Positions 30,561 through 54,067 of a DNA stretch of 64,000 nt are shown piece after piece. The stretch covers positions 13,388,683 through 13,452,682 of the forward strand of contig NC_091208.1 in NCBI RefSeq assembly GCF_040958095.1. Direction: 5' to 3'. Position 1 is the first letter of the stretch, and each line of letters starts with the position of its first letter. Position numbers and translations under genes: made by a program. The DNA comes from Procambarus clarkii. Lineage: Eukaryota; Arthropoda; Malacostraca; Decapoda; Cambaridae. The notes under the pieces are model-generated. The model did no database searches, had not been told where the DNA came from, and saw only the letters and a program-made list of their open reading frames with translations.

Positions 30561-31086
30561 TTTCTGATAGGGTTAATAGATGCAATCAAGTTAAATTTTT
30601 GACCGATTGTGGTAGACATTAAGTGCTACGAAAGAGACGAGGATTAATCGAATATTTTTGAAAATTTAAATCTTCATTTGTGGAGGATTAGTTTGCATTT
30701 ATTGATCAATTTAAGAGGTAAGAGGTTGTTGTACTTACCATGAACTGTTCAATGAATTGACTAATGATGTACGCAACAGCCTCGTCTGTCAAGAAGCTTA
30801 TCTACCTCGCTCCATCTGTGAAATTATAAATAAAAATGTTAATTTATTATTTTACCTATGTATATGCAAATTCAGGATTTTTTTTTTAATCTTTAAAAGT
30901 TTTACCGATACATGTATACTGTTGCTAATGTTGGTACCTTCCAAACTTCAAGAAACTATTAAGAGATATTTCTTTACTCTTAGTTCAACTGGTAGTACGT
31001 GTCGAGGGACGAGAGTTAAATCCCTTTGTAGTCCCTCCATAGTTTATCGCAGATAAATCACTTGCGAGTTTTATTATGTTCAGTAA

Positions 31087-32112: not shown

Positions 32113-32281
32113 AATATATTAAAATCCAAGAACCTAACATAGTTTCTTTCACAAGCTAATAAACAAGCAGCTTAGTTTGGATAACATAATCTGTTGAACT
32201 TTTAATGACTTTGTAAACTCCCACTGACCAATTCTCCTAACACTCTCATCAGTCTGCGTCGGCTGCAACATGGTCGAGCTT

Positions 32282-32395
32282 GTTGTTGTTGTTATTGTTA
32301 TAGATTCAGCTACTCGGAACAAGTTCCAAGTAGCACGAGCTATGGTGAGCCCGTAGTGGACTTACCTGGCACAGGAGCGAGGCTGTGTGTGGGTC
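32282..32395 (-). mobile_element. 114-bp retroposed LINE-tail/SINE with 11-bp TSD
   Basis: Flanked by TGGTCGAGCTT at 32271-32281 and 32396-32406, an exact 11-bp duplication. The left edge is (GTT)n, which reads as an (AAC)n tail on the minus strand. The body ('ctactcgga-aagttc', 'tagcacgagctatggtgagc') matches the 3' end of family G at 32553-32620. It sits inside the first coding exon of 2H copy B. Confidence 0.85.
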
Positions 32396-32539
32396 TGGTC
32401 GAGCTTCTTGCCTTCGCTCCAAAGAGAATCTTGCAGTTCCTTCATGTCGTGTTTCACGTTACCTGACAGGTCCAAGTTGGCGATGTGGGTAGGTTCCGTT
32501 CTGGTAGTCATTTCGGATGCCATCTGCAATGAAACTTAC

Positions 32540-33990: not shown

Positions 33991-33999
33991 GATCGGATG

Positions 34000-34830
34000 C
34001 TCCCCAGCTGCCCGATACCGGGAAATAGCGGAAGGATGGGGTCCCTATAGTCTCTTCAGGCCATAGACCCTAGAAGATTTTCCATGTTTGGTGAAACTAA
34101 AATTTGAACGGTTGAATCACAAATACTTTGGTTCCTGTGGATACGACGATCTGTCGTTGTTCTGTATATTGGTGAGGTTTTATGGAAAACAAAATCGTTT
34201 GGGCACGTTTCCTTAAACCAATGCTTCTGCTTCCCCCCCCCCCCCTCGTAGTGAATACACGGGAGTCAGGCGACTGTTGTGGGTTGTATTCTGGAAAATG
34301 TCAAGGCCTTGAGAAACCTTGATAAGTCAAATAGCTTTTCTTCCCCCTACAAAGAGTGACGACATTTCATGAATAAATCTCTTAGTTAACGTCTGTTTGT
34401 GAAGGTAATATTGTGACATTTTGGGTAGTGCGGAGTACTGTTATCAGTTGGCATGTATACTGAGCGATGCTTATATCTCCCGGTGTAGTATACCTTGTGG
34501 TTTACTATTTATTTGTATTATACAATGTGGTGTACTCTTTTTTGGTTATTTTATGTGGTTTACTTTTTTGGTTGGTGTACTCTTTTTTTTGGGTTATACC
34601 ATGTGGTATACTTGTCTGCTTCATTAGATAAGGATTGCGTTCGATTACAGTTCAGATTCCCGAAGTCAGTATAGCCTGCTTATATTGTCTAACCTTTCAT
34701 ATTCCGCTGATTGAACTCGGTATATGTGTGGCGTGTGGGATATGTTTGGGCGCTGTTGGCAGAAACCTCCGAATGAGTTTGACTGTTGAATTCGTCTTCC
34801 TTATATCCGGACACTGTCTTTCCTTTCCGC
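34000..34830. other. Intergenic, no gene recognised
   Basis: A poly-C run is at 34234-34246. A loosely repeated 'tgtggtgtactcttttttgg' motif is at about 34480-34610. No coding evidence was seen. Confidence 0.5.
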
Positions 34831-34950
34831 CATTTTTATTACTTTGTATCCGGCCTCCTGCTCCAGCACCCATTTTCATTACCTTATATCCGGCCTCATG
34901 ACCCAGCACCTATTTCCATTACCTTATATCCGGCCTCATGACCCAGCACT
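34831..34950. repeat. 40-bp tandem repeat, three units
   Basis: 'accttatatccggcctcatg' begins at 34881 and 34921, and a diverged copy ('actttgtatccggcctcctg') begins at 34841, giving an exact 40-bp period. Confidence 0.85.
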
Positions 34951-35399
34951 CATCTTGCATTTCATGCAACACATTACTTGCCACGAGTGATCGTTGAATG
35001 TTATAAGTGCTTTCTTTGCGAACTTTTAGTCCGAGTGGGCCTGTCTGTGTTCTTATCTGTGCTTTTGTGCACAGCGCAATTTTTGTGTTTTGGTTTAGCA
35101 ACAAAAAGGTAAATATGTTTAATGATGTGTTTCTCTGTATTTTATCTAAAAGGAGAATGTCCTGACGAGTGATTTCTGGAGCCGCCGAAGACCCATTCAC
35201 TCAAGTGGGAGGAGACCAGGTGCAAGCATTGATTTTAGATACTCCTTCACTGCTTGTTCGGGCTGTCTCTGTCTCTCTCTCCCTTTTATCTTTTATATAT
35301 ATACAAGAGTTGTTACATTCTTTTACAGCCACTAGCACGTATAGCGTTTCGGGCAAGTCCTTAATCTTAATTTTCCCCGGAAAACGACCCGTTATATAG
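34951..35399. other. Intergenic, no gene recognised
   Basis: No supportable gene was seen. Short open frames on both strands lack family resemblance. Confidence 0.5.
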
Positions 35400-35680
35400 T
35401 TTAACAACTAGGTACTTTCAGCGCCGTGGAGAGGGAAGACCTGCTGCCTGGGTAACAGCTTCTCCCCCGAATCAACCTACCCTGGCTTTGCGCTCTGGTG
35501 AGGCCACTCCAGACCGACAACCAGAGCGCAACTCCATAGTCTCTTGAGACTGATGGATGCCAACTACTACCCATATGGAGACGAGGAGTCACAATAACGT
35601 GGCTGAAATATGTTGACCAAGCCACACACTAGAAAGTGAAGGGACGACAACGTTTCGGTCCGTCCTGGACCATTCTCACT
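35400..35680 (+). repeat. Interspersed repeat E, long copy
   Basis: This is the longest copy of E in the window. It contains 'tggctttgcgctctggtgag', 'gtctcttgagactgatggat' and the shared core 'gaagggacgacaacgtttcg'. It contains small self-complementary stretches but no coding frame. It abuts the SINE at 35684. Confidence 0.6.
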
Positions 35681-35683
35681 CGG

Positions 35684-35870
35684 ACTGTAGGTACCTATAC
35701 ACTACTGGATGAACAAAGGCTACAGTTAAGGATTGGCACCCAGTAAATTCTCCCCCGGCCAGGATACGAACCAAGGTCTGAGCGCTTCCGATATGCCTAG
35801 CAAGTGTGTTACCACTTCCCCATGGGGACTGCGAATCTCCACGGATATGTTTACTCACCAATCTGGCTGG
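35684..35870 (-). mobile_element. tRNA-derived SINE (SINE-1)
   Basis: Read on the minus strand, an A-box-like 'GGGGAAGTGGTAACACACTT' and a B box TTGGTTCGTATCC lie about 40 bp apart. They are followed by the body 'GGCCGGGGGAGAA', 'CCAATCCTTAACTGTAGCC', 'TTGTTCATCCAG' shared with 1450-1600. The head is a tRNA-like region without an intact cloverleaf. Confidence 0.75.
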
Positions 35871-36779
35871 CTTTAAAAACCGTCTTTCGCCTGGGCAGCC
35901 GGTTATCTAGGATATGGTTCTTAACCCACCTTGTAATTGATCAGTTACAAAATATCAAAGCTATTAAATATCGTTATTAGTTAAAGCTACTAACTAAATC
36001 TCCCAATTAAGGTTACGAAACAACTCAACTGAGGTTACTAACTAGTGATATTGAAACTACATGTATATTTTAGTGCTACTACTTGAATATTGTTTTCTTG
36101 GCTGCGATTCTGCTAAAAATGAGATTCATGAGGTGATGGGACGAGTTGAATGGGGTTGTTGAGGGAGGGGGTAAATGTTCTCGATGAGGGGGAGTAGGAG
36201 GGATGGGATGTGATTGTACGAGGAAGGGAGAGAAAGAGAGAGGGGGGGGCAAAAGGGAGGGAAAGTATGAATGGGAAGGAGGAGGGTGGGGGGGGGGGAA
36301 ATGAGGGTCAGCGGCAACTTGAACAATAGCCTTTTTTTCTCTCACAATGAAAACTATTTTAATTTTAAAAAAACGTTTTCTGTAATTGTCGTCATGTTGC
36401 AGCATAGAAGCAAATGTGTTTTATATTTGTCTTAAAATATATGAATATATTTTCTTTGTTTTGTGTTATAGCTCGATAGTGTTTTTTTTGTACATTAAAA
36501 AAAAAAAAACTTAGTGGGTATGCCCTATATCGATAGAAATGGACGGGAGATTTAGACAACAATTACAATCGAATTAATAACATGAAGCCAACCAAATACC
36601 AATTTCATTTGTATTTCGTGTGCATTGTGCGGGGATTATTTACTGCATATAAAGTGAAGCCAGTCGATATAGTAGCTACAAGTTCTTTGCAACAGGTCCA
36701 AGAGATACATGCTCTGTATACTACAGCTGTCGGCACACATTACCTTCCTGGTACAGGCGTCCACCGCCAATGGCGTAGG
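35871..36779. other. Intergenic with a purine-rich tract
   Basis: 36150-36300 is strongly G/A-rich on the plus strand, including runs of 7-9 G. Poly-A runs are at 36368-36373 and 36498-36509. No gene was seen. Confidence 0.5.
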
Positions 36780-37245
36780 CACATCGGGGAGGAGACACAC
36801 TCCTAGCCCGCCTCGATCGCTTTGAGACAGGCTGCCGGTCGTCTGAGCTATCACTCCCATCAACATTTCCATCTTCCTGCACCACAACAGAACCCTATGG
36901 CGGGCACGCTTTACCCCTGAGAACCGCAGCTTCCACAACCGGGGGCCACACACGGCACGAGACAGCTCCTCGTGGACAGCCAGAGCGACAGGAGACACCG
37001 TATTCAGGGACGTAGCAGGCAGGGGCGGCTGAGACGGGAAAGCCGACGGCGTGGGCTGAGCTGCACCAACCCCCATACCACCACCCAGGCGAGCTGCAGG
37101 ATCCGACACTGGGGCAACAGACGGCAGGAAATCAACACACATGCCAGCACCAGGAAACGGGTCCGGGGCCGAAAACGCCGACAACAGGGTTGACCCGGCG
37201 TGCCTCACACCCCGCAGCCCCGGGAGGCTGCACCTGAAAAGCTAA
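36780..37245 (-). mobile_element. GC-rich block, possible LINE ORF fragment
   Basis: A sharply bounded GC-rich island lies in AT-rich sequence, with an open minus-strand frame (37208 to ~36790) rich in Pro/Ala/Ser and ending in a basic 'KLRFSGVKRARHRVLLWCRK' stretch. Base composition and Pro/Ala richness resemble the Tx1-like element at 21379-28255, but I see no direct alignment to it. It may be a fragment of a related element or of an unrelated gene. Confidence 0.3.
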
Positions 37246-37757
37246 AAATCCTCCTCGCGGTACATAATTAGAAGTGAGTTTTAAGTAGTTAAGTTATGTT
37301 ATAATTGGGAAATATTTCCCATTATAAGTGTAAAAGGTTCCAGTTATATATGAATATGTATTATAAAGGGAAGAGTCACTCTTACTATCTTGGTGATTTT
37401 ATTGTGTAAAAATTATTGCATCCAATTGGAAAATAATATTTCTGGTATATATACAATAAAATTTATTAATGTTATTTATATTCAAATAAAGATACAATTT
37501 ATATTGTATCTTATATCACTAATAATACATGATTTTATAAATCATGTTAAATCATTTATTATATGTAAATCATAAATCATATATTATATATAAATCATAA
37601 ATCATATATTATATTTAATTCATAAATCATATATTATATTTAAATCATAAATCATATTATTATATCATGTTTATAAAAATCCTGAATGAAGACAAATTCA
37701 GTTCTCGTTACGTTAAATGCAAATAAATATTATTTATAATTTACATATTATTTGTAA

Positions 37758-38363
37758 TTATGAGAAGCTCTGGCGTCGTCTTAGCTGTCCTCCTTGGCTG
37801 TTTGTTTCAGTTGTTTCAGTCGTCGTCTGAGAAATCAACAAACTTTGTCGTCGTCTTAAACTTTTTCTTTCTCGTCTAAATGGTGTTTGTGTGTTTGTTT
37901 CAGGTTCATTCATATATGCCGCAATATACGAATAAACGGTAGTAGTATTTTCCAAGGGTGGCTGGGAATTAGCCAAGTGCCCACTTGACATGGGCATATT
38001 TGTAGATTGGGAAGTATACTTCAGGGTATACTCCTTGAACCCCACCCTTGGAATGGGGATTTTCGTTCGGCGGGGAATATTTGCAGATTTGATCAGATCT
38101 CTTATGATTTCTCGATGTTGGATTTGAACGGTGGGTCTCCTGTAATAAGCAAGTTCATTCTCATTCACCCACCGTCGCTTGAATAATGTGACGTGGGGTT
38201 CAAAACTGTAATTCTGTAGGCGTAGACCTTGCTTGTCCAGTAGGGCAATTATCTCCCGCCGCAGATCGAAAGGATTGTGTGACTCTTGAATCTTTAGGAA
38301 GATGACACTTGTGTCAAAATTCCCTAAGCCATCTAAGACGACGCTCAGCTTCCGTTCTTTTTT
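37758..38363 (-). CDS. Last exon of 2H phosphoesterase copy C, second HxT motif
   Basis: The exon follows the strong acceptor CTCTCTTTTTCCTTAG and is open for 201 codons to a TAA at 37758. It begins 'KKERKLSVVLDGLGNFDTSV' and contains IFLKIQES, a helix region 'LRREIIALLDKQGLRLQN' and SFEPHVTLFKRR. This matches the second half of the AKAP7-type 2H fold, where human AKAP7 has a GIGTFGNQVGFVKL-like strand and SFKPHLTFMKL. HVT is the second catalytic HxT. The C-terminal ~80 residues are not in that domain. They contain 'PPLENTTTVYSYIA' and two RRRQS motifs, which fit PKA-type phosphorylation consensus (inference). Similar exons occur in copies A and B and inverted at 12585-13150; this is the only fully open one. 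Function is uncertain without the first motif. Confidence 0.7.
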   Translation of the reverse strand, partial: KKERKLSVVLDGLGNFDTSVIFLKIQESHNPFDLRREIIALLDKQGLRLQNYSFEPHVTLFKRRWVNENELAYYRRPTVQIQHREIIRDLIKSANIPRRTKIPIPRVGFKEYTLKYTSQSTNMPMSSGHLANSQPPLENTTTVYSYIAAYMNEPETNTQTPFRRERKSLRRRQSLLISQTTTETTETNSQGGQLRRRQSFS

Positions 38364-38439
38364 CTAAGGAAAAAGAGAGCACGTTGTTAATATCAGCGAA
38401 TAGTAAGTAAATATATAAGAACTATTATTTAAAGCTTAA

Positions 38440-38920
38440 AAACTTAAATTACATTCTCTAGAAAGGCGAAGAATGAATTAATATGAACAAATCCACAAGG
38501 GCCGTGAATAACCTACGTCCGAGATGGCCCCAGACGCGCCTTATTCGACTGCGCCACGACATGGTAAAAGAAAATGGGCACTTTGAGTGTAACTGCCCTC
38601 ACAAAGCTCCCACAGCATATACACAGGGAGAAAGCACGTCTGGGATTATCCCGGACGTAGGTTCGAACCCTCATGGATTTGTTCATCTGATGCATCATGC
38701 TATTGTGATTTCTGTGTGTAATGAGATAATATTCGTTCGGTAATATGGTTGAAATTGTGCAGAACTAATTACCGCATACCATAATGCAAGTGGGGTATCT
38801 TGATTGTGTCAAGCGTAGGTTTGACACATGAATGAGATTGGGTGGATATAAACAAGAGCTGTCTCGTATGGACCAATAGGCCCATACTTTCTGTAGTTAC
38901 TCTCATTCTTATATTCTTAA
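38440..38920. mobile_element. Inverted tRNA-like SINE pair inside a CR1-B fragment (copy C intron)
   Basis: The minus-strand head (38572-38500) has 'GTGGCGCAGTCGAATAAGG'. The plus-strand relative (38625-38720) has 'gacgtaggttcgaaccctc' and 'tggatttgttcatctgatgc'. Both are flanked by LINE B pieces ('ttacattctctagaaaggcg' left; 'ttcggtaatatggttgaaat' right). The heads keep pol III box-like motifs but the cloverleafs are imperfect, so they are not called tRNA genes. Confidence 0.65.
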
Positions 38921-39138
38921 CGTTTTTAATGGGGGTGCAATGAAGCAAAATTTTGACCGATTTTGGGAGACATTAAGTGCTACGAAATGGACGAGGATTA
39001 ATCGAACAGTATCCTCAATTCGAGGATTAATCGAACCGTATCCTCAACTCGAGGATTAATCGAACATCTTTCCTCAATTATGGCGGTTTAGTTTGCATTT
39101 ACTGATCAATTTAACAAGTACGAGGTTGTTGTACTTAC

Positions 39139-39212
39139 CATAAATTTCTGAATCAGTTGACTAATAATGTACGAAACATCCTGGTCAAGCTTATGTACCT
39201 TCCTCCATTTAT
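39139..39212 (-). CDS. Internal exon of 2H phosphoesterase copy C
   Basis: A 74-nt exon between a TAGTTTCAG acceptor and a GTAAGT donor. It reads KWRKVHKLDQDVSYIISQLI then QKFM, the helix that follows the first HxT strand in AKAP7-like proteins. The acceptor side needs one base from the previous exon (phase 1). The donor side is phase 0 and matches the last exon at 38363. Equivalent exons are at 11795-11725 and 30815-30739; the first lost its GT donor (now GC). Confidence 0.65.
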
Positions 39213-39596
39213 CTGAAACTACAAAATATGAATTTTATAATTTAATATTTAACCTGCTATGTATATACGCAAATTCAGAAAAAAAATATTTAATTTTAAA
39301 AACAAAACGAACATAGTTTTACCAATATATGTATATTGTCGCTAATGTTGGTACCTTCCAAACTTCAAGTAACTATACAAGAAATATTTCATTAGTCATG
39401 GTTCAACTGGTAGTACGTGTCTAGGGACACGTACGCAGATAAATCACACCCTTTTGAGTTCATAATATGCAATATATAAAAATTCAAGAACCTAACGTAC
39501 CTTCTTTCACCACAGGTAGCTTAGTTTGGATAACATAATCTGTTGATCTGTGAATGACTTTATAAACTCCCACTGACCAATTCTGCTAACCCTGAT

Positions 39597-39888
39597 CTAC
39601 ACTACTTATGAAAGTAGTCATGAAAGTTAATGAATCTGTCGAACAAAGGCTCCGCTATTACATTAGTTAAGAACATAAGAATGAAGGTAAATGTTGAAAG
39701 CCTATTGGCCCATACAACCTAGATCCTTTTTATAACAAACCATATGGTCAGCAGGAGGAAGAAGCTAAGGGGAGAACTTACCGTTAAATAATTCTTCTAT
39801 ATATTTTAACCTGTTTCTCGTTAACTCCTGCGCCACCAGTTTCTTGAGGTTCTTCAACATAACATATCGATGCAAGGACGTATTTCTG
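39597..39888 (-). repeat. Inverted edge fragment of the 2.26-kb array
   Basis: This is the reverse complement of the segment found in direct orientation at, for example, 41781-42040. It includes the 3' half of the candidate exon (39888-39782, with the same GTAAGTTC donor) and the 'ggccaataggccttcaac' LINE tail. It joins the direct array at about 39889 and copy C of the 2H gene at about 39596. Confidence 0.85.
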
Positions 39889-40059
39889 GGCCTGATGGGA
39901 TTTGTTTCTCGAACAGTCAGTAATAAATTACCTAGTGCTATTTTTTGCAGCCATACAATGCTCCATTTACATTATCCTGTCCTGTTTTTGTCCCAATTGT
40001 ATACAATTAATAAATGTTTGGGTATTCGTTACGATTGTGCAGGCAGGTTGTGAAAGGAA

Positions 40060-41330
40060 TCAGAGGGGATATAAGAAATGTAAAACCAAAAAATCAATAC
40101 AAAAATATTAGTAAAAAGTCAAATAGGACAATAGGAATAATTAATCGTAGCGTTAGTAATTAGAGACCTGGTGTTGTTCTTCAGCTATATATTACTACTA
40201 TTAGGCCCCCTGAAGATTATGCAGTTCAGATCGTATCAACGTACTATGGAATGGATATTAATTTACTAGAACGTGTCCAGTGTAGGATGACGAAGGTATT
40301 CTCGCAAATTAGAAATCTGGCATAGTAAAAATGATTGACGAAGCTTAAACTACATTATATGGAAAGGCGAAGAATTAGGGTTAACATGATAGGGATTTAC
40401 AAGTGGGCTAATGGACATAGCAAAGGGGTTATTAATAGGGTATTAAAAGTCTCAACACACACAGACGAGGAGTCAAAAAATTTGGTTGAAATATGTTGAC
40501 TGAACCTCACACTAGAATGTGATGGAACGACGAAGTTCCGGTCCGTCTTGGACCAGTCACAATTCGATCAACACAAGGCAAAACATGAACAAATGGGTAT
40601 AAATTTGAAAAGTTTAAATTTAGAAATGGCCTGGGTAAATGTTGGTTTGGTAAGAGTGTACACAATTCGAAGGGCAAATTACCGCATAGCATAACAGTTG
40701 AAGGATCTCTTGATTGTTTCAAGCGTAGGTTTTATATATATGTGAATGGGGTTGGGTGCATATAAATAGGAACTTCTTCGACGGCGATGCCATCTGCTAA
40801 TAGGCCATCTGCTTTTACCTTCATTCCTATGTTCATATGAATGGACATTCATATGAACATAGGAATGTTCATATGAACAAAAAGGGATATTAATAGGGTA
40901 TTAAAAGTATCAACGCATAATAAAACTCAAAACAATGAATATAAACTGGATAACTATAGATATGGGAATGTTCTGGGTAAATAAAGATTCGGTAACAGGA
41001 CTGTCGATTTGTGGACCCTATTACGGCAAAACATTGGGGGATACTAATAGTAGTAATAAAAGTGTCAACACAAGACATAACACGAAACAATGAGTATAAA
41101 TTGGATAAGATTAGATTTATAATAGACATGGGTAAATACTGGTTCGGTAACAGAGTTGTTGATTTGTAGAACCAATTACCGCCTACTGTTGTGGAGGTGG
41201 GGTCCTTCAATTGTTTCAAGAGTTGGATGGACATGTATATGAGTGGGATTGGGTGGTTATAAATAGCAGTTGCCTTGTATGGGCCAATAAGCCTTCTGCA
41301 GTCACCTTCTTATGTTCTTAACTGTTGCAC
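40060..41330 (+). mobile_element. CR1-B LINE fragments in array unit 1 (same in each unit)
   Basis: 40060-40330 encodes the family B thumb region; in other units this reads 'NISKKSNRTLGLINRSLSNK' and ERVQRRMTKVFSQIRNLA. The 3' portion and tails follow: 40340-40480, 40560-40830, 40880-41040 and 41040-41330, each ending like a truncated CR1-B 3' end. A repeat E piece lies at 40480-40560. Equivalent segments recur at 42260-43580, 44520-45830, 46780-48090 and 49040-50350. They predate the amplification. Confidence 0.8.
40822..40867. repeat. 46-bp palindrome in array unit 1
   Basis: Arms of 22 bp (40822-40843 and 40846-40867) are perfect reverse complements around a 2-bp centre. The core is TTCATATGAATG. 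The same palindrome is perfect at 47586-47631 and has one or two mismatches near 43067, 45326 and 49846. Confidence 0.9.
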
Positions 41331-41654
41331 CAAGAGAATCTCATTCTTGCTCTAATGATCCATTTGAGAAAATGTGAGTGGTTGTTTGTGTTGAGACATT
41401 TTCCATCAATAGCATGTTGATGTTGTCTCTCAATCGACTACTATAACAAAATTTATCATAGTACGGGCTATTGTTTGCTGTAGCGGCTCAGTGATATATC
41501 TATTTATTTCAGATACTAGACATAAACTCCATGTCACCAGACTTCACCTGATATGATTTAGCTCGTAAGGCGCCGAACCAACTCAGACCCTCACTTGCTT
41601 CCCCAGTTCTTTTCTGGTCGTGCTGTTTGTTTACGCTCGTCCGTTGTTGTAACC

Positions 41655-41874
41655 ATGGAAAAGACTAATCCATTTGAGAAGAGTTACTTCTCACCCCGCA
41701 AGATTCAGATGAGAGAGCAAAATACAATTCTGAAGCTCTCCACCGCCAAAATTTCCAAACTCAGGCGCAGAAATACGTCCTTGCATCTATATGTTATGTT
41801 GAAGAACCTCAAGAAACGGGTGGAACAGGAGTTAACGAGAAACAGGTTAGAATATATGGAAGAATTATTTAACG
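41655..41874 (+). CDS. Candidate first exon, array copy 1
   Basis: An ATG in optimal context (aaccATGG) opens 73 codons ending at AACG|GTAAGT, a perfect 5' splice donor in phase 1. The peptide begins MEKTNPFEKSYFSPRKIQM and is highly basic, with a leucine-spaced helical stretch ('LKLSTAKISKLRRRNTSL', 'VMLKNLKKRVEQELTRNRLE') that suggests a coiled coil. I do not recognise the family. The frame is intact in all units although the surrounding LINE debris is not, which argues for origin from a real gene exon. No downstream exon on the plus strand is visible. A partial inverted copy lies at 39888-39782, upstream of 2H copy C. Confidence 0.5.
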
Positions 41875-43898
41875 GTAAGTTCTCCCCTTAGCTTTTTCCT
41901 CCTGCTGACCATATAGTTTGTTATAAAAAGGATCTGGGTTGTATGGGCCAATAGGCCTTCAACATTTACCTTCATTCTTATGTTCTTAACTAATGTAAGA
42001 GCGGAGCCTTTGTTCGATAGATTCATTAACTTTCATGACATTTATGAAACACAATTAATGACATTCATATACTAATGGGTCCATTACCTCCTAGCATCAC
42101 CTGTAGCCAGGTCTGCAAATAGCTATTGCAAATATGCAATGGGATTTGTTTCTCGAACAGTCAGTAATAAATCACCTAGTGCTATATTTTGCAGCCATAC
42201 CTTGCTCCATTTACATTATCCTGCACTGTTTTTGTCCTAATTGTATACAAATAATTCATTTTCTGGTATTCGTAGCGATTGCGCAGGCGGGTTGCGAAAG
42301 GGATCAGGGGGATATAAGAGATATAATTAGCAAGAAATTAAAACCAAAAAATCAATACAAAAATATTAGTAAAAAGTCAAATAGGACACTAGGATTAATT
42401 AATCGTAGCCTTAGTAATAAGAAACCTGGTGTTGTTCTTCAGCTATATATTACTACTGTTCGGCCCCCTGTAGATTATGCAGTTCAGATCGTATCAACAT
42501 ACAATGGAATGGATATTAATTTACTAGAACGTGTCCAGCGTTGGATGACGAAGGTATTCTCGCAAATTAGAAATCTGGCATAGTAAAAAAGATTGACGAA
42601 GCTTAAACTACATTATATGGAAAGGCGAAGAATTAGGGTTGACATGATAGGGATTTACAAGTGGGCTAATGGACATAGCAAAGGGGTTATTAATAGGGTA
42701 TTAAAAGTCTCAACACACACAGACGAGGTGTCACAAAAACTTGGTTGAAATATGTTTACTGAACCTCACACTAGAAAGTGATGGAACGACGAAGTTCGGG
42801 TCCGTCCTGGACCATTCACAATTCGACCAACACAAGGCAAAACATTAACAAATGGGCATAAATTTGAAAAGTTTAAATTTTGAAATGGCCTGGATAAATG
42901 TTGGTTTGGTAACAGTGTACACAATTCGAAGGGCAAATTACCGCATAGCATAACAGTTGAAGGATCTCTTCATTGTTTCAAGCGTAGTTTTTTATATATA
43001 TGTTAATGGGGTTGGGTGGATATAAATAGGAACTTCTTCGACGGCGATGCCATCTGCTTTTACCTTCATTCCTATGTTCATATGAATGGACATTCATATG
43101 AACATAAGAATGTTCATATGAACAAAAAGGGATATTAATAGGGTATTAAAAGTATCAACGCATAATAAAACTCAAAACAATGAATATAAACTGGATAACT
43201 ATAGATATGGGAATGTTCTAGGTAAATACAGATTCGGTAACAGGACTGTCGATTTGTGGACCCTATTACCGCAAAACATTGGGGGATATAATAGTAGTAT
43301 TAAAAGTGTCAACACAAGACATAACACGAAACAATGAGTATAAATTGGATAAGATTATATTTATAATAGACATAGGTAAATACTGGTTCGGTAACAGAGT
43401 TGTTGATTTGTAGAACCAATTACCGCCTACTGTTGTGGAGGTGGGGTCCTTCAATTGTTTCAAGAGTTGGATGGACATGTATATGAGTGGGATTGGGTGG
43501 TTATAAATAGCAGTTGCCTTGTATGGGCCAATAAGCCTTCTGCAGTCACCTTCTTATGTTCTTAACTGTTGCACCAAGAGAATCTCATTCTTGCTCTAAT
43601 GATCCATTTGAGAAGATGTGAGTGGTTGTTTGTGTTGAGATATTTTCCATCAATAGCATGTTGATGTTGTCTCTCAATCTACTACTATAACAAAATTTAT
43701 CATAGTACGGGCTATTGCGTGCTGTAGTGGCTCAGTGATATATCCATTTATTTCAGATACTAGGCATAAACTCCATGTCACCAGACTTCATCTGATATGA
43801 TTTAGCTCATAAGGCGCCGAACCAACTCAGACCCTCACTTGCTTCCCCAGTTCTTTCCTGGTCGTGCGGTTTGTTTAAGCTCGTCCGTTGTTGTAACC

Positions 43899-44118
43899 AT
43901 GGCAAAGACTAATCCATTTGAGAAGAGTTACTTCTCACCCCGCAAGATTCAGATGAGAGAGCAAAAATCAATTCTGAAGCTCTCCACCGCCAAAATTTCC
44001 AAACTCAGGCGCAGAAATACGTCCTTGCATCGATATGTTATGTTGAAGAACCTCAAGAAACGGGTGGAGCAGGAGTTAACGAGAAACAGGTTAGAATATA
44101 TGGAAGAATTATTTAACG
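43899..44118 (+). CDS. Candidate first exon, array copy 2
   Basis: The same exon as at 41655, beginning MAKTNPFEKSYFS, with the donor GTAAGT at 44119. It has Q-K-S where other copies have Q-K-T or Q-N-T, but the frame is intact. Confidence 0.5.
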
Positions 44119-46158
44119 GTAAGTTCTCCCCTTAGCTTCTTCCTCCTGCTGATCATATAGTTTGTTATAAAAAGGATCTGGATTGTATGGGCCAATAGGC
44201 CTTCAACATTTACCTTCATTCATATGTTGTTAACTAATGTAAGAGCGGAGCCTTTGTTCGATAGATTCATTAACTTTTATGACATTTATGAAACACAATT
44301 AATGACATTCATATACTATTGGGTCCATTACCTCCCAGCATCACCTGTAGCCAAGTCTGCAAATAGCTATTGCAAATATACAATGGGATTTGTTTCTCGA
44401 ACAGTCAGTAATAAATCACCTAGTGCTATATTTTGCAGCCATACCTTGCTCCATTTACATTATCCTGCACTGTTTTTGTCCCAATTGTATGCAAATAATA
44501 AATTTTCTGGTATTCGTTGCGATTGCGCAGGAGGGTTGCGAAAGGGATCAGGGGGATATATGAGATATAATTAGCAAGAATTTAAAACCAAAAAATCAAT
44601 ACAAAAATATTAGTAAAAAGTCAAATAGGACACTAGGATTAATTAATCGTAGCCTTAGTAATAAGAAACCTGGTGTTGTTCTTCAGCTATATATTACTAC
44701 TGTTCGGCCCCCTGTAGATTATGCAGTTCAGATCGTATCAACATACTATGGAATGGATATTAATTTACTAGAACGTGTCCAGCGTAGGATGACGAAGGTA
44801 TTCTCGCAAATTAGAAATCTGGCATAGTAAAAAAGATTGACGATGCTTAAACTACATTATATGGAAAGGCGAAGAATTAGGGTTGACATGATAGTGATTT
44901 ACAAGTGGGCTAATGGACATAGCAAAGGGGTTATTAATAGGGTATTAAAAGTCTCAACACACACAGACGAGGAGTAACAAAAACTTGGTTGAAATATGTT
45001 GACTGAACCTCACACTAAAAAGTGATGGAACGACGATGTTCCGGTCCGTCTTGGACCAGTCACAATTCGATCAACACAAGGCAAAACATGAACAAATGGG
45101 TATAAATTTGAAAAGTATAAATTTAGAAATGGCCTGGGTAAATGTTGGTTTGGTAACAGTGTACACAATTCGAAGGGCAAATTACCGCATAGCATAACAG
45201 TTGAAGGATCTCTTGATTGTTTCAAGCGTAGGTTTTTATATATATGTGAATGGGGTTGGGTGGATATAAATAGGAACTTCTTCGACGGCGATGCCATCTG
45301 CTAATAGGTCATCTGCTTTTACCTTCATTCCTATGTTCATATGAATGGACATTCATATAAACATAGGAATGTTCATATGAACAAAGAGGGATATTAATAG
45401 GGTATTAAAAGTATGAACGCATAATAAAACTCAAAACAATGAATATAAACTGGATAACTATAGATATGGGAATGTTCTGGGTAAATACAGATTCGGTAAC
45501 AGGACTGTCGATTTGTGGACCCTATTACCGCAAAACATAGGGGGATATTAATAGTAGTATTAAAAGTGTCAACACAAGACATAACACGAAACAATGAGTA
45601 TAAATTGGTTAAGATTAGATTTATAATAGACATGGGTAAATACTGGTTCGGTAACAGAGTTGTTAATTTGTAGAACCAATTACCGCCTACTGTTGTGGAG
45701 GTGGGGTCCTTCAATTGTTTCAAGAGTTGGATGGACATGTATATGAGTGGGATTGGGTCGTTATAAATAGCAGTTGCCTTGTATGGGCCAATAAGCCTTC
45801 TGCAGTCACCTTCTTATGTTCTTAACTGTTGCACCAAGAGAATCTCATTCTTGCTCTAATGATCCATTTGAGAAGATGTGAGTGGTTGTTTGTGTTGAGA
45901 TATTTTCCATCAATAGCATGTTGATGTTGTCTCTCAATCTACTACTATAACAAAATTTATCATAGTACGGGCTATTGCGTGCTGTAGTGGCTCAGTGATA
46001 TATCCATTTATTTCAGATACTAGGCATAAACTCCATGTCACCAGACTTCACCTGATATGATTTAGCTCATAAGGCGCCGAACCAACTCAGACCCTCACTT
46101 GCTTCCCCAGTTCTTTCCTGGTCGTGCTGTTTGTTTACGCTCGTCCGTTGTTGTAACC

Positions 46159-46378
46159 TTGGCAAAGACTAATCCATTTGAAAAGAGTTACTTCTCACCC
46201 CGCAAGATTCAGATGAGAGAGCAAAAAACAATTCTGAAGCTCTCCACCGCCAAAATTTCCAAACTCAGGCGCAGAAATACGTCCTTGCATCGATATGTTA
46301 TGTTGAAGAACCTCAAGAAACGGGTGGAGCAGGAGTTAACGAGAAACAGGTTAGAATATATGGAAGAATTATTTAACG
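46159..46378 (+). pseudogene. Candidate first exon, array copy 3, start codon lost
   Basis: The frame and splice donor are intact, but the start is TTG (aaccTTGG) where the other copies have ATG. If the exon is a genuine first exon, this copy would not initiate at that site. Confidence 0.5.
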
Positions 46379-48418
46379 GTAAGTTCTCCCCTTAGCTTCT
46401 TCCTCCAGCTGATCATATAGTTTGTTATAAAAAGGATCTGGATTGTATGGGCCAATAGGCCTTCAACATTTACCTTCATTCTTAAGTTCTTAACTAATGT
46501 AAGAGCGGAGCCTTTGTTCGATAGATTCATTAACTTTTATGACATTTATGAAACACAATTAATGACATTCATATACTATTGGGTCCATTACCTCCCAGCA
46601 TCACCTGTAGCCAAGTCTGCAAATAGCTATTGCAAATATACAATGGGATTTGTTTCTCGAACAGTCAGTAATAAATCACCTAGTGCTATATTTTGCAGCC
46701 ATACCTTGCTCCATTTACATTATCCTGCACTGTTTTTGTCCCAATTGAATACAAATAATAAATTTTCTGGTATTCGTTGCGATTGCGCAGGAGGGTTGCG
46801 AAAGGGATCAGGAGGATATAAGAGATATAATTTGCAAGAATTTAAAACCAAAAATTCAATACAAAAATATTAGTAAAAAGTCAAATAGGACACTAGGATT
46901 AATTAATCGTAGCCTTAGTAATAAGAAACCTGGTGTTGTTCTTCAGCTATATATTACTACTGTTCGGCCCCCTGTAGATTATGCAGTTCAGATCGTATCA
47001 ACATACTATGGAATGGATATTAATTTACTAGAACGTGTCCAGCGTAGGATGACGAAGGTATTCTCGCAAATTAGAAATCTGGCATAGTAAAAAAGATTGA
47101 CGATGCTTAAACTACATTATATGGAAAGGCGAAGAATTAGGGTTGACATGATAGTGATTTACAAGTGGGCTAATGGACATAGCAAAGGGGTTATTAATAG
47201 GGTATTAAAAGTCTCAACACACACAGACGAGGAGTAACAAAAACTTGGTTGAAATATGTTGACTGAACCTCACACTAAAAAGTGATGGAACGACGATGTT
47301 CCGGTCCGTCTTGGACCAGTCACAATTCGATCAACACAAGGCAAAACATGAACAAATGGGTATAAATTTGAAAAGTATAAATTTAGAAATGGCCTGGGTA
47401 AATGTTGGTTTGGTAACAGTGTACACAATTCGAAGGGCAAATTACCGCATAGCTTAACAGTTGAAGGATCTCTTGATTGTTTCAAGCGTAGGTTTTTATA
47501 TATATGTGAATGGGGTTGGGTGGATATAAATAGGAACTTCTTCTGCGGCGATGCCATCTGCTAATAGGTCATCTGCTTTTACCTTCATTCCTATGTTCAT
47601 ATGAATGGACATTCATATGAACATAGGAATGTTCATATGAACAAAAAGGGATATTAATAGGGTATTAAAAGTATCAACGCATAATAAAACTCAAAACAAT
47701 GAATATAAACTGGATAACTATAGATATGGGAATGTTCTGGGTAAATACAGATTCGGTAACAGGACTGTCGATTTGTGGACCCTATTACCGCAAAACATAG
47801 GGGGATATTAATAGTAGTATTAAAAGTGTAAACACAAGACATAACACGAAACAATGAGTATAAATTGGTTAAGATTAGATTTATAATAGACATGGGTAAA
47901 TACTGGTTCGGTAACAGAGTTGTTAATTTGTAGAACCAATTACCGCCTACTGTTGTGGAGGTGGGGTCCTTCAATTGTTTCAAGAGTTGGATGGACATGT
48001 ATATGAGTGGGATTGGGTGGTTATAAATAGCAGTTGCCTTGTATGGGCCAATAAGCCTTCTGCAGTCACCTTCTTATGTTCTTAACTGTTGGATCAAGAG
48101 AATCTCATTCTTGCTCTAATGATCCATTTGAGAAGATGTGAGTGGTTGTTTGTGTTGAGATATTTTCCATCAATAGCATGTTGATGTTGTCTCTCAATCT
48201 ACTACTATAACAAAATTTATCATAGTACGGGCTATTGCGTGCTGTAGTGGCTCAGTGATATATCCATTTATTTCAGATACTAGGCATAAACTCCATGTCA
48301 CCAGACTTCACCTGATATGATTTAGCTCATAAGGCGCCGAACCAACTCAGACCCTCACTTGCTTCCCCAGTTCTTTCCTGGTCGTGCTGTTTGTTTACGC
48401 TCGTCCGTTGTTGTAACC

Positions 48419-48638
48419 ATGGCAAAGACTAATCCATTTGAGAAGAGTTACTTCTCACCCCGCAAGATTCAGATGAGAGAGCAAAAAACAATTCTGAAGC
48501 TCTCCACCGCCAAAATTTCCAAACTCAGGCGCAGAAATACGTCCTTGCATCGATATGTTATGTTGAAGAACCTCAAGAAACGGGTGGAGCAGGAGTTAAC
48601 GAGAAACAGGTTAGAATATATGGAAGAATTATTTAACG
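48419..48638 (+). CDS. Candidate first exon, array copy 4
   Basis: MAKTNPFEKSYFSPRKIQM with intact frame and GTAAGT donor at 48639. It appears identical in protein to copies 3 and 5 apart from the start in copy 3. Confidence 0.5.
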
Positions 48639-50677
48639 GTAAGTTCTCCCCTTAGCTTCTTCCTCCAGCTGATCATATAGTTTGTTATAAAAAGGATCTG
48701 GATTGTATGGGCCAATAGGCCTTCAACATTTACCTTCATTCTTATGTTCTTAACGAATGTAAGAGCGGAGCCTTTGTTCGATAGATTCATTAACTTTTAT
48801 GACATTTATGAAACACAATTAATGACATTCATATACTATTGGGTCCATTACCTCCCAGCATCACCTGTAGCCAAGTCTGCAAATAGCTATTGCAAATATA
48901 CAATGGGATTTGTTTCTCGAACAGTCAGTAATAAATCACCTAGTGCTATATTTTGCAGCCATACCTTGCTCCATTTACATTATCCTGCACTGTTTTTGTC
49001 CCAATTGTATACAAATAATAAATTTTCTGGTATTCGTTGCGATTGCGCAGGAGGGTTGCGAAAGGGATCAGGGGGATATAAGAGATATAATTAGCAAGAA
49101 TTTAAAACCAAAAATTCAATACAAAAATATTAGTAAAAAGTCAAATAGGACACTAGGATTAATTAATCGTAGCCTTAGTAATAAGAAACCTGGTGTTGTT
49201 CTTCAGCTATATATTACTACTGTTCGGCCCCCTGTAGATTATGCAGTTCAGATCGTATCAACATACTATGGAATGGATATTAATTTACTAGAACGTGTCC
49301 AGCGTAGGATGACGAAGGTATTCTCGCAAATTAGAAATCTGGCATAGTAAAAAAGATTGACGATGCTTAAACTACATTATATGGAAAGGCGAAGAATTAG
49401 GGTTGACATGATAGTGATTTACAAGTGGGCTAATGGACATAGCAAAGGGGTTATTAATAGGGTATTAAAAGTCTCAACACACACAGACGAGGAGTAACAA
49501 AAACTTGGTTGAAATATGTTGACTGAACCTCACACTAAAAAGTGATGGAACGACGATGTTCCGGTCCGTCTTGGACCAGTCACAATTCGATCAACACAAG
49601 GCAAAACATGAACAAATGGGTATAAATTTGAAAAGTATAAATTTAGAAATGGCCTGGGTAAATGTTGGTTTGGTAACAGTGTACACAATTCGAAGGGCAA
49701 ATTACCGCATAGCATAACAGTTGAAGGATCTCTTGATTGTTTCAAGCGTAAGTTTTTATATATATGTGAATGGGGTTGGGTGGATATAAATAGGAACTTC
49801 TTCTGCGGCGATGCCATCTGCTAATAGGTCATCTGCTTTTACCTTCATTCCTATGTTCATATGAATGGACATTCATATAAACATAGGAATGTTCATATGA
49901 ACAAAGAGGGATATTAATAGGGTATTAAAAGTATCAACGCATAATAAAACTCAAAACAATGAATATAAACTGGATAACTATAGATATGGGAATGTTCTGG
50001 GTAAATACAGATTCGGTAACAGGACTGTCGATTTGTGGACCCTATTACCGCAAAACATAGGGGGATATTAATAGTAGTATTAAAAGTGTCAACATAAGAC
50101 ATAACACGAAACAATGAGTATAAATTGGTTAAGATTAGATTTATAATAGACATGGGTAAATACTGGTTCGGTAACAGAGTTGTTGATTTGTAGAACCAAT
50201 TACCGCCTACTGTTGTGGAGGTGGGGTCCTTCAATTGTTTCAAGAGTTGGATGGACATGTATATGAGTGGGATTGGGTGGTTATAAATAGCAGTTGCCTT
50301 GTATGGGCCAATAAGCCTTCTGCAGTCACCTTCTTATGTTCTTAACTGTTGCATCAAGAGAATCTCATTCTTGCTCTAATGATCCATTTGAGAAGATGTG
50401 AGTGGTTGTTTGTGTTGAGATATTTTCCATCAATAGCATGTTGATGTTTCTCTCAATCTACTACTATAACAAAATTTATCATAGTACGGGCTATTGCGTG
50501 CTGTAGTGGCTCAGTGATATATCCATTTATTTCAGATACTAGGCATAAACTCCATGTCACCAGACTTCACCTGATATGATTTAGCTCATAAGGCGCCGAA
50601 CCAACTCAGACCCTCACTTGCTTCCCCAGTTCTTTCCTGGTCGTGCTGTTTGTTTACACTCGTCCGTTGTTGTAACC

Positions 50678-50897
50678 ATGGCAAAGACTAATCCATTTGA
50701 AAAGAGTTACTTCTCACCCCGCAAGATTCAGATGAGAGAGCAAAAAACAATTCTGAAGCTCTCCACCGCCAAAATTTCCAAACTCAGGCGCAGAAATACG
50801 TCCTTGCATCGATATGTTATGTTGAAGAACCTCAAGAAACGGGTGGAGCAGGAGTTAACGAGAAACAGGTTAGAATATATGGAAGAATTATTTAACG
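50678..50897 (+). CDS. Candidate first exon, array copy 5
   Basis: The same exon with intact ATG and donor. It is the last copy before the assembly gap, and about 100 bp of the downstream unit sequence follows before the Ns. Confidence 0.5.
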
Positions 50898-51000
50898 GTA
50901 AGTTCTCCCCTTAGCTTCTTACTCCTGCTGACCTTATAGTTTGTTATAAAAAGGATCTGGATTGTATGGGCCAATAGGCCTTCAACATTTTCCTTCATTA

Positions 51001-51500
51001 NNNNNNNNNNNNNNNNNNNNNNNNNNNNNNNNNNNNNNNNNNNNNNNNNNNNNNNNNNNNNNNNNNNNNNNNNNNNNNNNNNNNNNNNNNNNNNNNNNNN
51101 NNNNNNNNNNNNNNNNNNNNNNNNNNNNNNNNNNNNNNNNNNNNNNNNNNNNNNNNNNNNNNNNNNNNNNNNNNNNNNNNNNNNNNNNNNNNNNNNNNNN
51201 NNNNNNNNNNNNNNNNNNNNNNNNNNNNNNNNNNNNNNNNNNNNNNNNNNNNNNNNNNNNNNNNNNNNNNNNNNNNNNNNNNNNNNNNNNNNNNNNNNNN
51301 NNNNNNNNNNNNNNNNNNNNNNNNNNNNNNNNNNNNNNNNNNNNNNNNNNNNNNNNNNNNNNNNNNNNNNNNNNNNNNNNNNNNNNNNNNNNNNNNNNNN
51401 NNNNNNNNNNNNNNNNNNNNNNNNNNNNNNNNNNNNNNNNNNNNNNNNNNNNNNNNNNNNNNNNNNNNNNNNNNNNNNNNNNNNNNNNNNNNNNNNNNNN
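51001..51500. other. Assembly gap (500 N)
   Basis: Exactly 500 unknown bases, probably a placeholder length. The left side is the tandem array and the right side the middle of a LINE, so both the array end and the LINE RT are missing. Confidence 0.95.
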
Positions 51501-51509
51501 TATTTCTTT

Positions 51510-52985
51510 GTCATCCTCCGTGTATGAACCTTCACTTGTACGAATAGGTCCAATACTAGCAGTGGTTTTTGCTTTTGATTTCGCATATGTGAAGAAATAT
51601 TTTGGATTTTTCTTTATTTCCTGAATTGCTTTCCGTTCTAACTGCCTTGCTTCAGTTTCATATGAGTGTTTCAATTTCCGCTCGATTTCTTCAATCTCGC
51701 TATTTAAATTATTCCTTCTTTGACGGGAAATTCGTGTCTGCATAAGCAGTTCCGTTATTTTTTTCCTGCGTTTATAGTGTCGTCTGCGTTCTCTTTCTAC
51801 GTTAGATCTCTTTCTGGCTTTCCTCAAAGGAACATGTTTCAGACAGACTTGATACGCTTCTGAAGTCAGTTTTTCTATTCCTTCTGTAGGACTTGTATTA
51901 TTTAGAACAGTTCCCCATGGAATGTTTGTAAGTTCCCTGTTTATTATCTCCCAGTCTATCTTTTATTATTAAAATTGAATTTACTGAATAGCCCCTCTCG
52001 CTTTATCAACGTTTTAGGTCTATTCTGAGTATTGATGGTCGTTTGCACTTCAATGAGCTTGTGATCTGAGTATGTGTATCTGATATCGTAATGTCTCTGA
52101 TAATGTCTTCATTGTTCGTAAAGACCAGATCTAAAATATTTTCATTTCTCGTTGGCTCCGATATCTGCTGATTGAGTGAAAATTTGTCACAGAATCTAAG
52201 TAGTTCTCTAATCTGTGGTTGGTTAGGTCCCGATAGATTTCCTGGTATAATATTATTGTTTGCTATTTTCCACCTGAGACTAGGCAAGTTGAAGTCACCT
52301 AGGAAGATAATATCAGGTATCGGGTTCTCCAAATTATCAAGGCTATTCTCTATTTTGTTTATCTGTTCTGTGAATTCCTCAGCCGTTGCATCTGGCGGTT
52401 TATATATTAGAATAATCACTAAATTTATTTTCTCTATTTTTAATCCCAGTACCTCTACCACCTCATTTGTAACGTTTAGGAGCTCCGAGCATACAAGGTC
52501 TTCCCTAATATACAGACCCACTCCTCCATGTGACCTAATTTTCTTATCACACCTGTATAGGTTATATCCTGGAATCCAGATCTCACTGTCCAACAATTCC
52601 CCTGCATGGGTTTCTGTGAAAGCTCCAAATACTGCATTTGACTCCGTGAGGAGGCCATTTATGAACTGTACTTTGTTGTTTGTTCTTGTTTTCAGTCCTT
52701 GTATGTTGGCAAAGATGAATGAGGTTACTCTATTAGTGATAGTTTGAATGGGAGACTTTTTCGGCAAGTCCATTATTCGTGGACATAATGAGTTTGTTCT
52801 GACCAGTACTGATTGTTGTAGGGCAGTTTTCTGTCGTAGTTGTAGTTCCCTTTCAGTGTGTAATTGTATCTGTAATTCTGGAATGCAAGTGGATCTGGCA
52901 TCCAGTTCCATACACTCTCCATGCTCCTCCTTTTGAATTCTCTTTCGGTCTGGTATAAAAATTTATAGAGTTCCTCCAAATTCAT
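51510..52985 (-). pseudogene. Family F LINE ORF2, endonuclease and linker (RT in gap)
   Basis: After a short N-terminal piece (52985-52773, MNLEELYKFLYQTEREFKRR) and a frame change, 52911-52006 is open for 301 codons. It contains FIFANIQGLKTRTNNKVQF, FGAFTETHAGELLDSE, RSHGGVGLYIREDLV, IYKPPDATAEE and IIFLGDFNLPSLRW, the APE endonuclease blocks; the usual final SDH motif is altered or lost. After a break near 51960, 51827-51510 encodes the basic linker (RKARKRSNVERERRRHYKRR). The RT and 3' end are not visible. Confidence 0.7.
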
Positions 52986-53720
52986 TATCCTGCTTGCCGT
53001 TCTTTATGTAGCGTTCCGTACCTTTCACGTGAAAGTGTGGGCAGCTGTGGTCATAGCAATTTCTGTCCTCCAGTGAGGTTTGGCACATGTCAGGATGGAA
53101 AAACGTACATATTGATCCAAATCGACACTCACCTTTCCTAAGCATATTTAAACATTTTTTGGGATGTTGGTAACTGCATTCTAATCCTTTCTTATTACCA
53201 GCATATATATGTCTGCATATGCCCTTGCATAAAATTTGCATAAGTCTGTCCTTCTGTTCTGAATTGCTATCGGGAACCGTCGTAGTGTCTGTACCTATCG
53301 AGCTGTCAGTGCTGTCTGTTACACTTTCTAGTTTACTGTCATCTACATCCTGGCCTACTGAGTCAGAGTTTACAACTTCCTGAGTTTCAGCCTCAGTTTC
53401 ATCCCTGACTATAGCCACCGCCCCTGGTATATTAGAATTGTTGTGTTCCTTTCCCACTCCTTCTGGATGGCTGGTAGGCTTCCAATGAATGATGTTTTCC
53501 GATCAAGCGTCATGTTATCTAGAAGGTTTTTTAGGATATTCCAAGCTGGCAGGTCATTTTTACACACCCAGAGCAAGTGGCCAGCTCTCAGTGTCGTAGT
53601 GTTACTCACTCCTGAACAAGCCGAATGAAATCTATTCTTACAGATATAACATTCAATTCCCGTTACCTTCGACTTTAAGGAGTTGTTACAGTGGCCACAA
53701 ATTTGTTTATTTACTCCCAT
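52963..53720 (-). pseudogene. Family F LINE ORF1 (PHD-like and CCCH zinc fingers)
   Basis: 53720-53450 begins MGVNKQICGHCNNSLKSK and has the spacing CGHC...CYIC...HSAC...WVCKND of a PHD/RING-like finger. After a one-base frame change near 53450, an acidic linker follows (ETEAETQEVVNSDS). Then comes a cysteine/histidine-rich region with CCCH-type spacing: CRHIYAGNKKGLECSYQH, CLNMLRKGECRFGSICTFFH, CYDHSCPHFH. PHD fingers are known in ORF1 of CR1-like elements; CCCH fingers typically bind RNA. Together they suggest a protein that holds element RNA and may contact chromatin (inference). Confidence 0.7.
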
Positions 53721-54067
53721 TTTGCCTTGTTTTGTTGTATATATCTATATATTTATAATATTATATGTATATCGCATATTTGTAATAATATATATGTTTA
53801 TTTGTTCTACTGTATGGTCAGTACTTATCGCACGGTGGAGGGTGAGGGTCCCAGAGGCTGTACAGTTGACACGTTGTTGTCCCAGGCCGCGGCTGGAGGC
53901 CCTCACTTGGCAGTTACTTAGGTTATAACACTGATATATTAATTCGCTTGTATTACAATAAGGGATTTTCTGCTTTATTTCCGACTTGCAATAGTATTCA
54001 CTTTCTCTATTACTAATTTCTCGATCCACATTCCCCTATTACACTTGTTGGAAACCAATTTTCTAGT

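What the first reader, a model, noticed from the sequence alone, without database searches (positions are those of the whole stretch)
39597..51000. Recent 2.26-kb tandem array that carries a coding-like exon in every unit
Five near-identical units (periods 2244, 2244, 2260, 2260) preserve a 220-bp basic, coiled-coil-like exon with an ideal start context and donor, while the LINE debris in the same unit is full of stops. Amplifying an exon with its start and donor but no visible partner exons is unusual. It could be a megasatellite, a multi-promoter or trans-splicing-like cassette array, or a young gene amplification cut by the gap.
Basis: partly seen in the sequence, partly recalled or inferred. 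Interest (0 to 1): 0.75.

Follow-up and report, generated by a model that had tools for sequence, protein, structure and literature searches.

The report
Genome-wide 2.25-kb macrosatellite with short reading frame
The five tandem copies are one small piece of a 2.25-kb repeat, about half of it dead LINE debris, that recurs in tandem in many places of this animal genome; each unit carries a short reading frame that shows no clear sign of being preserved as a protein.

Summary
The array is real: four full 2244-2260-bp units plus a fifth cut by a 500-N gap, 96.1-99.1% identical. The "exon" (73 codons, good start context, GTAAGT) is in all five, but unit 3 has lost the start codon. It is not a purely local array. 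The window's own 4.03-Gb assembly holds the peptide at 150 scored places (of 1568 candidates) on 14 contigs. A paralogous locus has a 2.35-unit array with both donors altered. In 20 full units from 11 places the exon has 14 replacement and 6 silent variants, close to neutral; its DNA is mildly less variable than the rest (20/220 against 299/2013, p=0.02). Copies with a stop or frameshift exist. No Pfam family passes its cut-off and no solved structure matches. Best reading: a LINE-derived macrosatellite carrying a once-coding relic, like human macrosatellites with a short ORF per monomer. Weak selection is not excluded. The trans-splicing/multi-promoter idea has no support here; expression could not be tested.

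The parts
39617..39895 (-). inverted copy of the exon's last ~113 nt, its donor and downstream sequence, forming the left edge of the array
   Evidence: 95.3% to 41761-42039 on the other strand; the same edge is present in the C26 paralogue
39895..42138 (+). unit 1 (2244 bp; most diverged, 96.1-96.4% to the others)
42139..44382 (+). unit 2 (2244 bp)
44383..46642 (+). unit 3 (2260 bp)
46643..48902 (+). unit 4 (2260 bp)
48903..51000 (+). unit 5, cut by the gap
41655..41874 (+). exon-like frame, unit 1, ATG...AAC G|GTAAGT
43899..44118 (+). exon-like frame, unit 2
46159..46378 (+). exon-like frame, unit 3; start codon lost (TTG)
48419..48638 (+). exon-like frame, unit 4
50678..50897 (+). exon-like frame, unit 5
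46821..48072 (+). LINE 3'-end debris within unit 4, with stops and internal duplications
   Evidence: 76-84% DNA identity in pieces to LINE copies at 15.9-16.5 kb, 21.0-21.4 kb and 35.6 kb; tblastn 57 of 89 residues identical to the frame at 21114-21524, which lies just downstream of a frame with RVT_1
48073..48683 (+). segment of unit 4 without a LINE match, which holds the exon-like frame
   Evidence: compared only with LINE copies of this window
48684..48748 (+). second LINE 3' tail of unit 4, just downstream of the exon-like frame
40822..40867 (.). 46-bp near-perfect palindrome, present in all five units (also 43067-43112, 45326-45371, 47586-47631, 49846-49891)
   Evidence: DNA hairpin z-score -7.9 for the unit-1 copy
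51001..51500 (.). assembly gap (500 N) that ends the visible array

Best explanation
The feature is one short array of a dispersed 2.25-kb macrosatellite. Shown: the unit consists of LINE 3'-end debris (about half) plus a ~610-bp segment without a LINE match that holds a 78-codon open frame; it recurs in tandem at many loci of the same assembly, in both orientations; one whole stretch with the array's left edge is duplicated on another contig. Inferred: a fragment that may once have been the 5' end of a gene or of another mobile element lay between LINE insertions; a tandem duplication formed; unequal crossing-over and gene conversion expanded and evened out the arrays; segmental duplication and template switching (inverted pieces at array edges) carried arrays to new places. 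The reading frame rides along and is not maintained as a protein.
For: 150 scored places (of 1568 candidates) on 14 contigs of the window's own assembly; 15 listed units run from base 1128 to 32830 of C1534, a 33,008-bp contig. A 901-bp non-exon query gives 40 long matches (of 6110 candidates, the window's own included) on 8 contigs. LINE origin of about half the unit. Units of one array are 97.3-100% identical in the 8 pairs (96.1% for window units 1 and 2). Frame not visibly preserved as protein: 5 replacement: 2 silent in the window; 11:4 in 8 copies from 3 loci; 17:7 plus 1 stop in 29 copies not chosen by exon match; 14:6 in 20 full units; these samples overlap, and the neutral expectation is about 25% silent. 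Start lost in unit 3, donors altered in A1 and A2, a frameshift in one C96 unit and a stop in a C159 copy. No Pfam hit above its cut-off, no PDB relative, no Rfam family or tRNA in the window.
Against: Variable sites are fewer in the exon than elsewhere: 20/220 against 299/2013 (p=0.019), exon among the lowest 53 of 2260 sliding windows, though a LINE stretch at unit position 905 is lower still; 17/220 against 105/737 flanking sites (p=0.011). With the exon-chosen copies included (54), the count is 17 replacement, 10 silent, 1 stop: P=0.11 under neutrality and 0.08 under dN/dS 0.3, so neither is excluded; dN/dS 0.5 is not excluded in the window set with the inverted piece either (P=0.12). In the six arrays read contiguously all 18 exons have the same peptide (0 replacement, 1 silent); those regions were chosen around high-scoring exon hits. 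Start + frame + donor is rare in shuffles (2 of 1000), and the peptide models as a confident helix while a chance frame of the unit does not (pLDDT 90 against 42.5), so it probably was coding once.
Confidence: 0.75

Rival explanations
1. Protein-coding macrosatellite: each unit is a small gene (78-residue ORF, or first exon of a longer gene) that is expressed and selected in at least the young arrays, while decayed copies are pseudogenes.
For: Identical peptide in all 18 units read from six arrays; lower DNA variation in the exon; good start context and helix-forming peptide; human TAF11-Like and PRR20 macrosatellites are precedents (passages of PMC3018141).
Against: Replacement:silent close to the neutral expectation in four overlapping samples; under dN/dS 0.3 so few silent changes have P 0.019 (29 copies) and 0.041 (8 copies), but 0.08 in the full 54-copy set; start, donor and frame losses occur; the six young arrays differ at only 40 of 1977 other sites, so an identical peptide says little there.
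Confidence: 0.14
2. The low exon variation reflects constraint or conversion at the DNA/RNA level (promoter, origin, protein-binding site) around the frame rather than on the peptide.
For: Low variation without amino-acid bias. In the six young arrays the interval from 132 to 358 nt after the start, which reaches past the exon end, has 0 variable sites of 225.
Against: A non-exon LINE stretch is less variable still; not significant in the six-array set alone (1/220 against 40/1977, p=0.12) nor in the window alone (p=0.12).
Confidence: 0.08
3. Assembly artefact: false tandem duplication of one locus.
For: The array abuts a 500-N gap.
Against: Units differ at 18-87 sites from each other, and the peptide is found on 13 other contigs.
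Confidence: 0.02

Closest known systems
Human ORF-bearing macrosatellites, nearest the TAF11-Like array on 5p15.1 (also RS447, D4Z4, PRR20)
   Same: Kilobase units in tandem; TAF11-Like has a 3.4-kb unit, 31.7% masked as mobile-element sequence, with one short ORF per monomer carrying 1 silent and 2 replacement SNPs (passages of PMC3018141).
   Different: There the ORF has recognisable homology and primate conservation and was tested by RT-PCR; here no homology was found, start/frame/donor losses exist, and the repeat is on 14 contigs, whereas the human ones tend to one or two chromosomes.
Satellite DNA derived from transposable elements
   Same: Tandemised mobile-element segments, with unequal crossing-over between element copies as a proposed route (passages of the review PMC12628747).
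   Different: The unit is long and composite: LINE 3' ends plus a segment without a LINE match that holds a reading frame.
Crayfish and decapod satellitomes
   Same: PMC13130569 (outline and passages) and PMC10454600 (outline and passages) report very many satDNA families and abundant LINEs in these genomes.
   Different: Placement of this window in a decapod is recalled from the LINE 3'-tail type and the 4.03-Gb genome size, not tested. In the passages read no 2.2-kb LINE-derived repeat with an ORF was seen; the supplementary tables were not read.

Membership tests
macrosatellite / megasatellite (tandem repeat with kilobase units) | head-to-tail array of kilobase-scale units | tested here: met
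   tandem units on other contigs
macrosatellite / megasatellite (tandem repeat with kilobase units) | units of one array more alike than units of different arrays | tested here: inconclusive
   within arrays 96.1-100%, between arrays 94.9-99.6%: the ranges overlap, although C159 and C109 pairs are 100%
macrosatellite / megasatellite (tandem repeat with kilobase units) | copy-number variation between individuals | not testable with these tools
   one assembly only; two paralogous arrays on C26 have about 2.35 and 1.35 units against at least 4.9 here
macrosatellite / megasatellite (tandem repeat with kilobase units) | tendency to one or two chromosomal locations (as in the human examples) | tested here: not met
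   14 contigs (contigs are not shown to be different chromosomes); the human criterion is from a passage of PMC3018141
TE-derived satellite | unit contains recognisable mobile-element sequence | tested here: met
   unit-4 positions 179-1430 (in pieces) and 2042-2106 match LINE copies
protein-coding tandem gene family | purifying selection on the encoded peptide | tested here: inconclusive
   14 replacement: 6 silent against about 25% silent expected, so not detected; strong constraint fits poorly, weak constraint is not excluded
protein-coding tandem gene family | intact start and frame in all copies | tested here: not met
   start lost in unit 3; frameshift and stop copies
protein-coding tandem gene family | transcription | not testable with these tools
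trans-splicing / multi-promoter cassette array | functional donor in each unit and a shared downstream acceptor exon | tested here: inconclusive
   donor sequence intact in 5 of 5 window units, altered in 2 of 2 full units of the C26 paralogue; acceptor exons were not searched for systematically; the gap hides the right side

The most novel reading that the evidence does not exclude
The repeat is an expressed coding macrosatellite: a lineage-specific basic helical 78-residue protein, matching nothing searched here, encoded well over a hundred times and held identical across young arrays, analogous to D4Z4/DUX4 or RS447 but dispersed over many contigs.
Probability: 0.1. Interest if true: 0.65.

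Novelty: new member of a known kind. Interest (0 to 1): 0.3.

Why it matters
It shows how a LINE-rich genome can turn a chimaera of dead LINE tails and a coding-like fragment into a widespread tandem repeat. It also gives a caution: a well-formed 'exon' repeated in every unit of an array is not by itself evidence of a gene, because tandem duplication and conversion copy it whether or not it works. If the frame proved to be expressed, it would be a dispersed counterpart of the human ORF-bearing macrosatellites.

Tried and rejected
Protein-family identity: Pfam gave only sub-threshold SERTA and DUF7870 scores; PDB gave only two gp41-derived constructs at E 0.7; in IMG/VR 48 stretches matched a pattern and none was confirmed. 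My own recalled lead of a P-element/THAP-type coiled coil found no support in Pfam. A second lead, that the frame is the linker between the endonuclease and reverse-transcriptase domains of a LINE, was rejected: even the best match outside the array (22.3 bits, not the LINE one at 21.2) is equalled by 82 of 300 shuffled peptides. RNA gene units (5S, snRNA, tRNA) were rejected. Heptad periodicity was rejected. Paper searches for ORF-bearing satellites gave nothing that I used.

Rows dropped or invalid: five loci that repeat the window's own units (L019, L021, L030, L032, L036), gapped copies and copies whose alignment did not reach both ends of the 219 nt were left out before counting (this removes unit 3, A2 and the frameshifted C96 copy, among others, so losses are undercounted). 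In one search the C57a row is out of register (its upstream lies outside the array), so the pooled 'rest' figure there is not used. In one search the set 'young subfamily all' is invalid because minus-strand loci were not turned; it is not used. In one search's W+A+B set the last bin (from +584 on) is inflated by an array edge, and its p-value is not used. The count of 107 of 160 differences printed for the sequence after the exon is a one-base register slip and is not used.
Full report
Observation. Self-comparison gives dominant offsets of 2260 and 2244 (and their multiples) and one 500-N gap at 51001-51500. The forward units begin at 39895, 42139, 44383, 46643 and 48903; the last is cut at 51000. 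Pairwise identity is 96.1-99.1%: units 3-5 are about 99.1% to each other and unit 1 is the most diverged. Nothing in the window right of the gap matches the unit. The left edge is an inverted 279-bp piece (39617-39895) of the exon's 3' part, its donor and downstream sequence.

The exon. All five units carry the 219-nt frame followed by G|GTAAGT, but unit 3 reads TTG for ATG. Stop to stop the frame has 109 codons, and it ends in TAG five codons beyond residue 73, so it can equally be a 78-codon ORF. Length proves little: an antisense frame of the same unit is open over 139 codons in 4 of 5 units, and 89 of 400 shuffled units reach 109 codons. The full combination of good start, open frame and GTRAGT at 220 nt is met in 2 of 1000 shuffles, but reached or exceeded in 2 of 22 equal tiles of the rest of the window. 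The peptide has no heptad periodicity beyond shuffles (2937 of 5000). AlphaFold from the single sequence gives one helix over residues 14-72 with mean pLDDT 90, while the antisense control frame gives 42.5; that is one control frame only. I take it as probably once coding. Pfam gives no hit above cut-off, and PDB and IMG/VR no relative.

The unit. In unit 4, pieces between positions 179 and 1430 and the stretch 2042-2106 match LINE copies elsewhere in the window, with stops and internal duplications; the nearest intact frame lies just downstream of one with a reverse-transcriptase domain. The exon (1777-1996) sits in a ~610-bp segment without a LINE match between two LINE tails. Each unit also has a 46-bp near-perfect palindrome. 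Rfam and ARAGORN find no RNA gene in the window.

The genome. The own-genome search answered 3 of 31 requests, but decisively. The window is C59:13388683-13452682 of a 4,027,284,227-bp assembly in 2308 contigs. The exon peptide matches 150 scored places (of 1568 candidates) on 14 contigs: C17, C26, C57, C59, C69, C96, C109, C131, C159, C192, C1534, C1624, C1974 and C2030. Hits on C96 span 1.850-2.124 Mb, which is not shown to be one unbroken array, and C1534 (33,008 bp) has 15 listed hits from base 1128 to 32830. A non-exon query of 901 bp gives 40 long matches (of 6110 candidates) on 8 contigs, the window's own included. Strand switches occur inside arrays, for example on C131 between 1480474 and 1482955. 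Units of one array are 97.3-100% identical in the 8 pairs and 96.1-99.1% in the window; units of different places are 95.8-99.6% in the 11 pairs and down to 94.9%. The ranges overlap, so homogenisation within arrays is inferred, not shown.

The paralogous locus. Window 28257-45165 is 96.9% identical to C26:29884545-29901433. There the same inverted left edge is followed by about 2.35 units that end, without a gap, in a ~190-bp inverted piece. A second short array lies about 10 kb further on the other strand (29911436-29915996), and another place on C26 (about 34.956-34.959 Mb) has about 1.35 units. I infer that the edge inversion predates the segmental duplication, and that the copy number has changed since.

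Selection on the frame. Window units: 5 replacement (start loss included) to 2 silent; the neutral expectation is 71% replacement, 24% silent and 5% stop. The inverted piece adds 4 replacement and 0 silent. Eight copies from three loci: 11 to 4, with ATAAGT and GCAAGT in place of the donor in the two full C26 units. Twenty-nine copies not chosen by exon match: 17 to 7 plus one stop; all 54 countable copies: 17 to 10 plus one stop. Twenty full units from 11 places: 14 to 6. These samples overlap. A frameshifted unit on C96 and a copy with a stop on C159 were seen. Under dN/dS 0.3 so few silent changes would have probability 0.019 (29 copies) or 0.081 (54 copies), and 0.041 (8 copies); dN/dS 0.5 is not excluded. 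Against neutrality of the DNA, variable sites in the exon are fewer than in the rest of the unit: 20/220 against 299/2013, p=0.019, lowest 53 of 2260 sliding windows, with a LINE stretch lower still. In the window alone the difference is not significant (7/220 against 120/2040, p=0.12). In six young arrays all 18 exons encode the same peptide, but there 1/220 against 40/1977 is also not significant (p=0.12, 11 full units), and those regions were picked around good exon hits. I read this as no demonstrated constraint on the protein, with a weak, possibly biased deficit of DNA variation left unexplained.

Mechanism and comparison. The anatomy fits tandemisation of a chimaeric segment, evening-out by unequal exchange and conversion (inferred), and spread with inversions and segmental duplication (the latter shown once). 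Human macrosatellites with one short ORF per mobile-element-bearing monomer are the nearest described kind that I found; for TAF11-Like the monomer is 3.4 kb and 31.7% repeat-masked (passages of PMC3018141). Satellites from transposable elements, with unequal crossing-over as a proposed route, are reviewed in PMC12628747 (passages). Decapod and crayfish genomes are described as rich in satDNA families and LINEs (PMC13130569 and PMC10454600, outlines and passages). That this genome is a decapod is my recollection from the LINE tail type and genome size, not a test. A search for papers holding 'macrosatellite' and 'crustacean' listed 3, of which by title only PMC13130569 concerns crustacean satellites; there 'macrosatellite' means any unit above 100 bp.

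Verdict.

Noticed in passing
window 12637-13059 (+) and 37761-38363 (-): Two related frames; the second matches the 2'-5' RNA ligase superfamily (PF13563, E 3.6e-6, just above cut-off) and AKAP7_NLS below cut-off. Their DNA is 91% identical over 613 bp in opposite orientation, with further copies on C26: a dispersed 2H-phosphoesterase-like gene fragment.
   Followed up: partly
window 28257-45165 and C26:29884545-29901433: Segmental duplication at 96.9%; other window blocks (5923-16249 at 94.2%, 19607-23143 at 98.1%) also match the same C26 neighbourhood, and block 11616-18088 matches it inverted at 92.9%.
   Followed up: partly
window 23120-28198 (-): Long LINE with endonuclease (E 1.9e-15) and reverse-transcriptase (E 6.3e-28) frames; its upstream 713-codon frame contains a 27-bp minisatellite of 26 copies at 26753-27461.
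   Followed up: no
window 43602 and 43912 (unit 2; 13-15 bp of it also in other units): A 15-bp stretch near the start of the exon recurs exactly 310 bp upstream, followed there by a GTGAGT donor-like site: possibly a partial exon duplication inside the unit.
   Followed up: no
C131:1464460-1496703: Array that switches orientation once, 8 listed units on + then 7 on -: two convergent macrosatellite arrays forming a large inverted repeat.
   Followed up: no
window 52009-53744 (-): LINE with sub-threshold PHD-like and CCCH zinc-finger scores in its first frames and an endonuclease (E 3.5e-12), just right of the gap.
   Followed up: no
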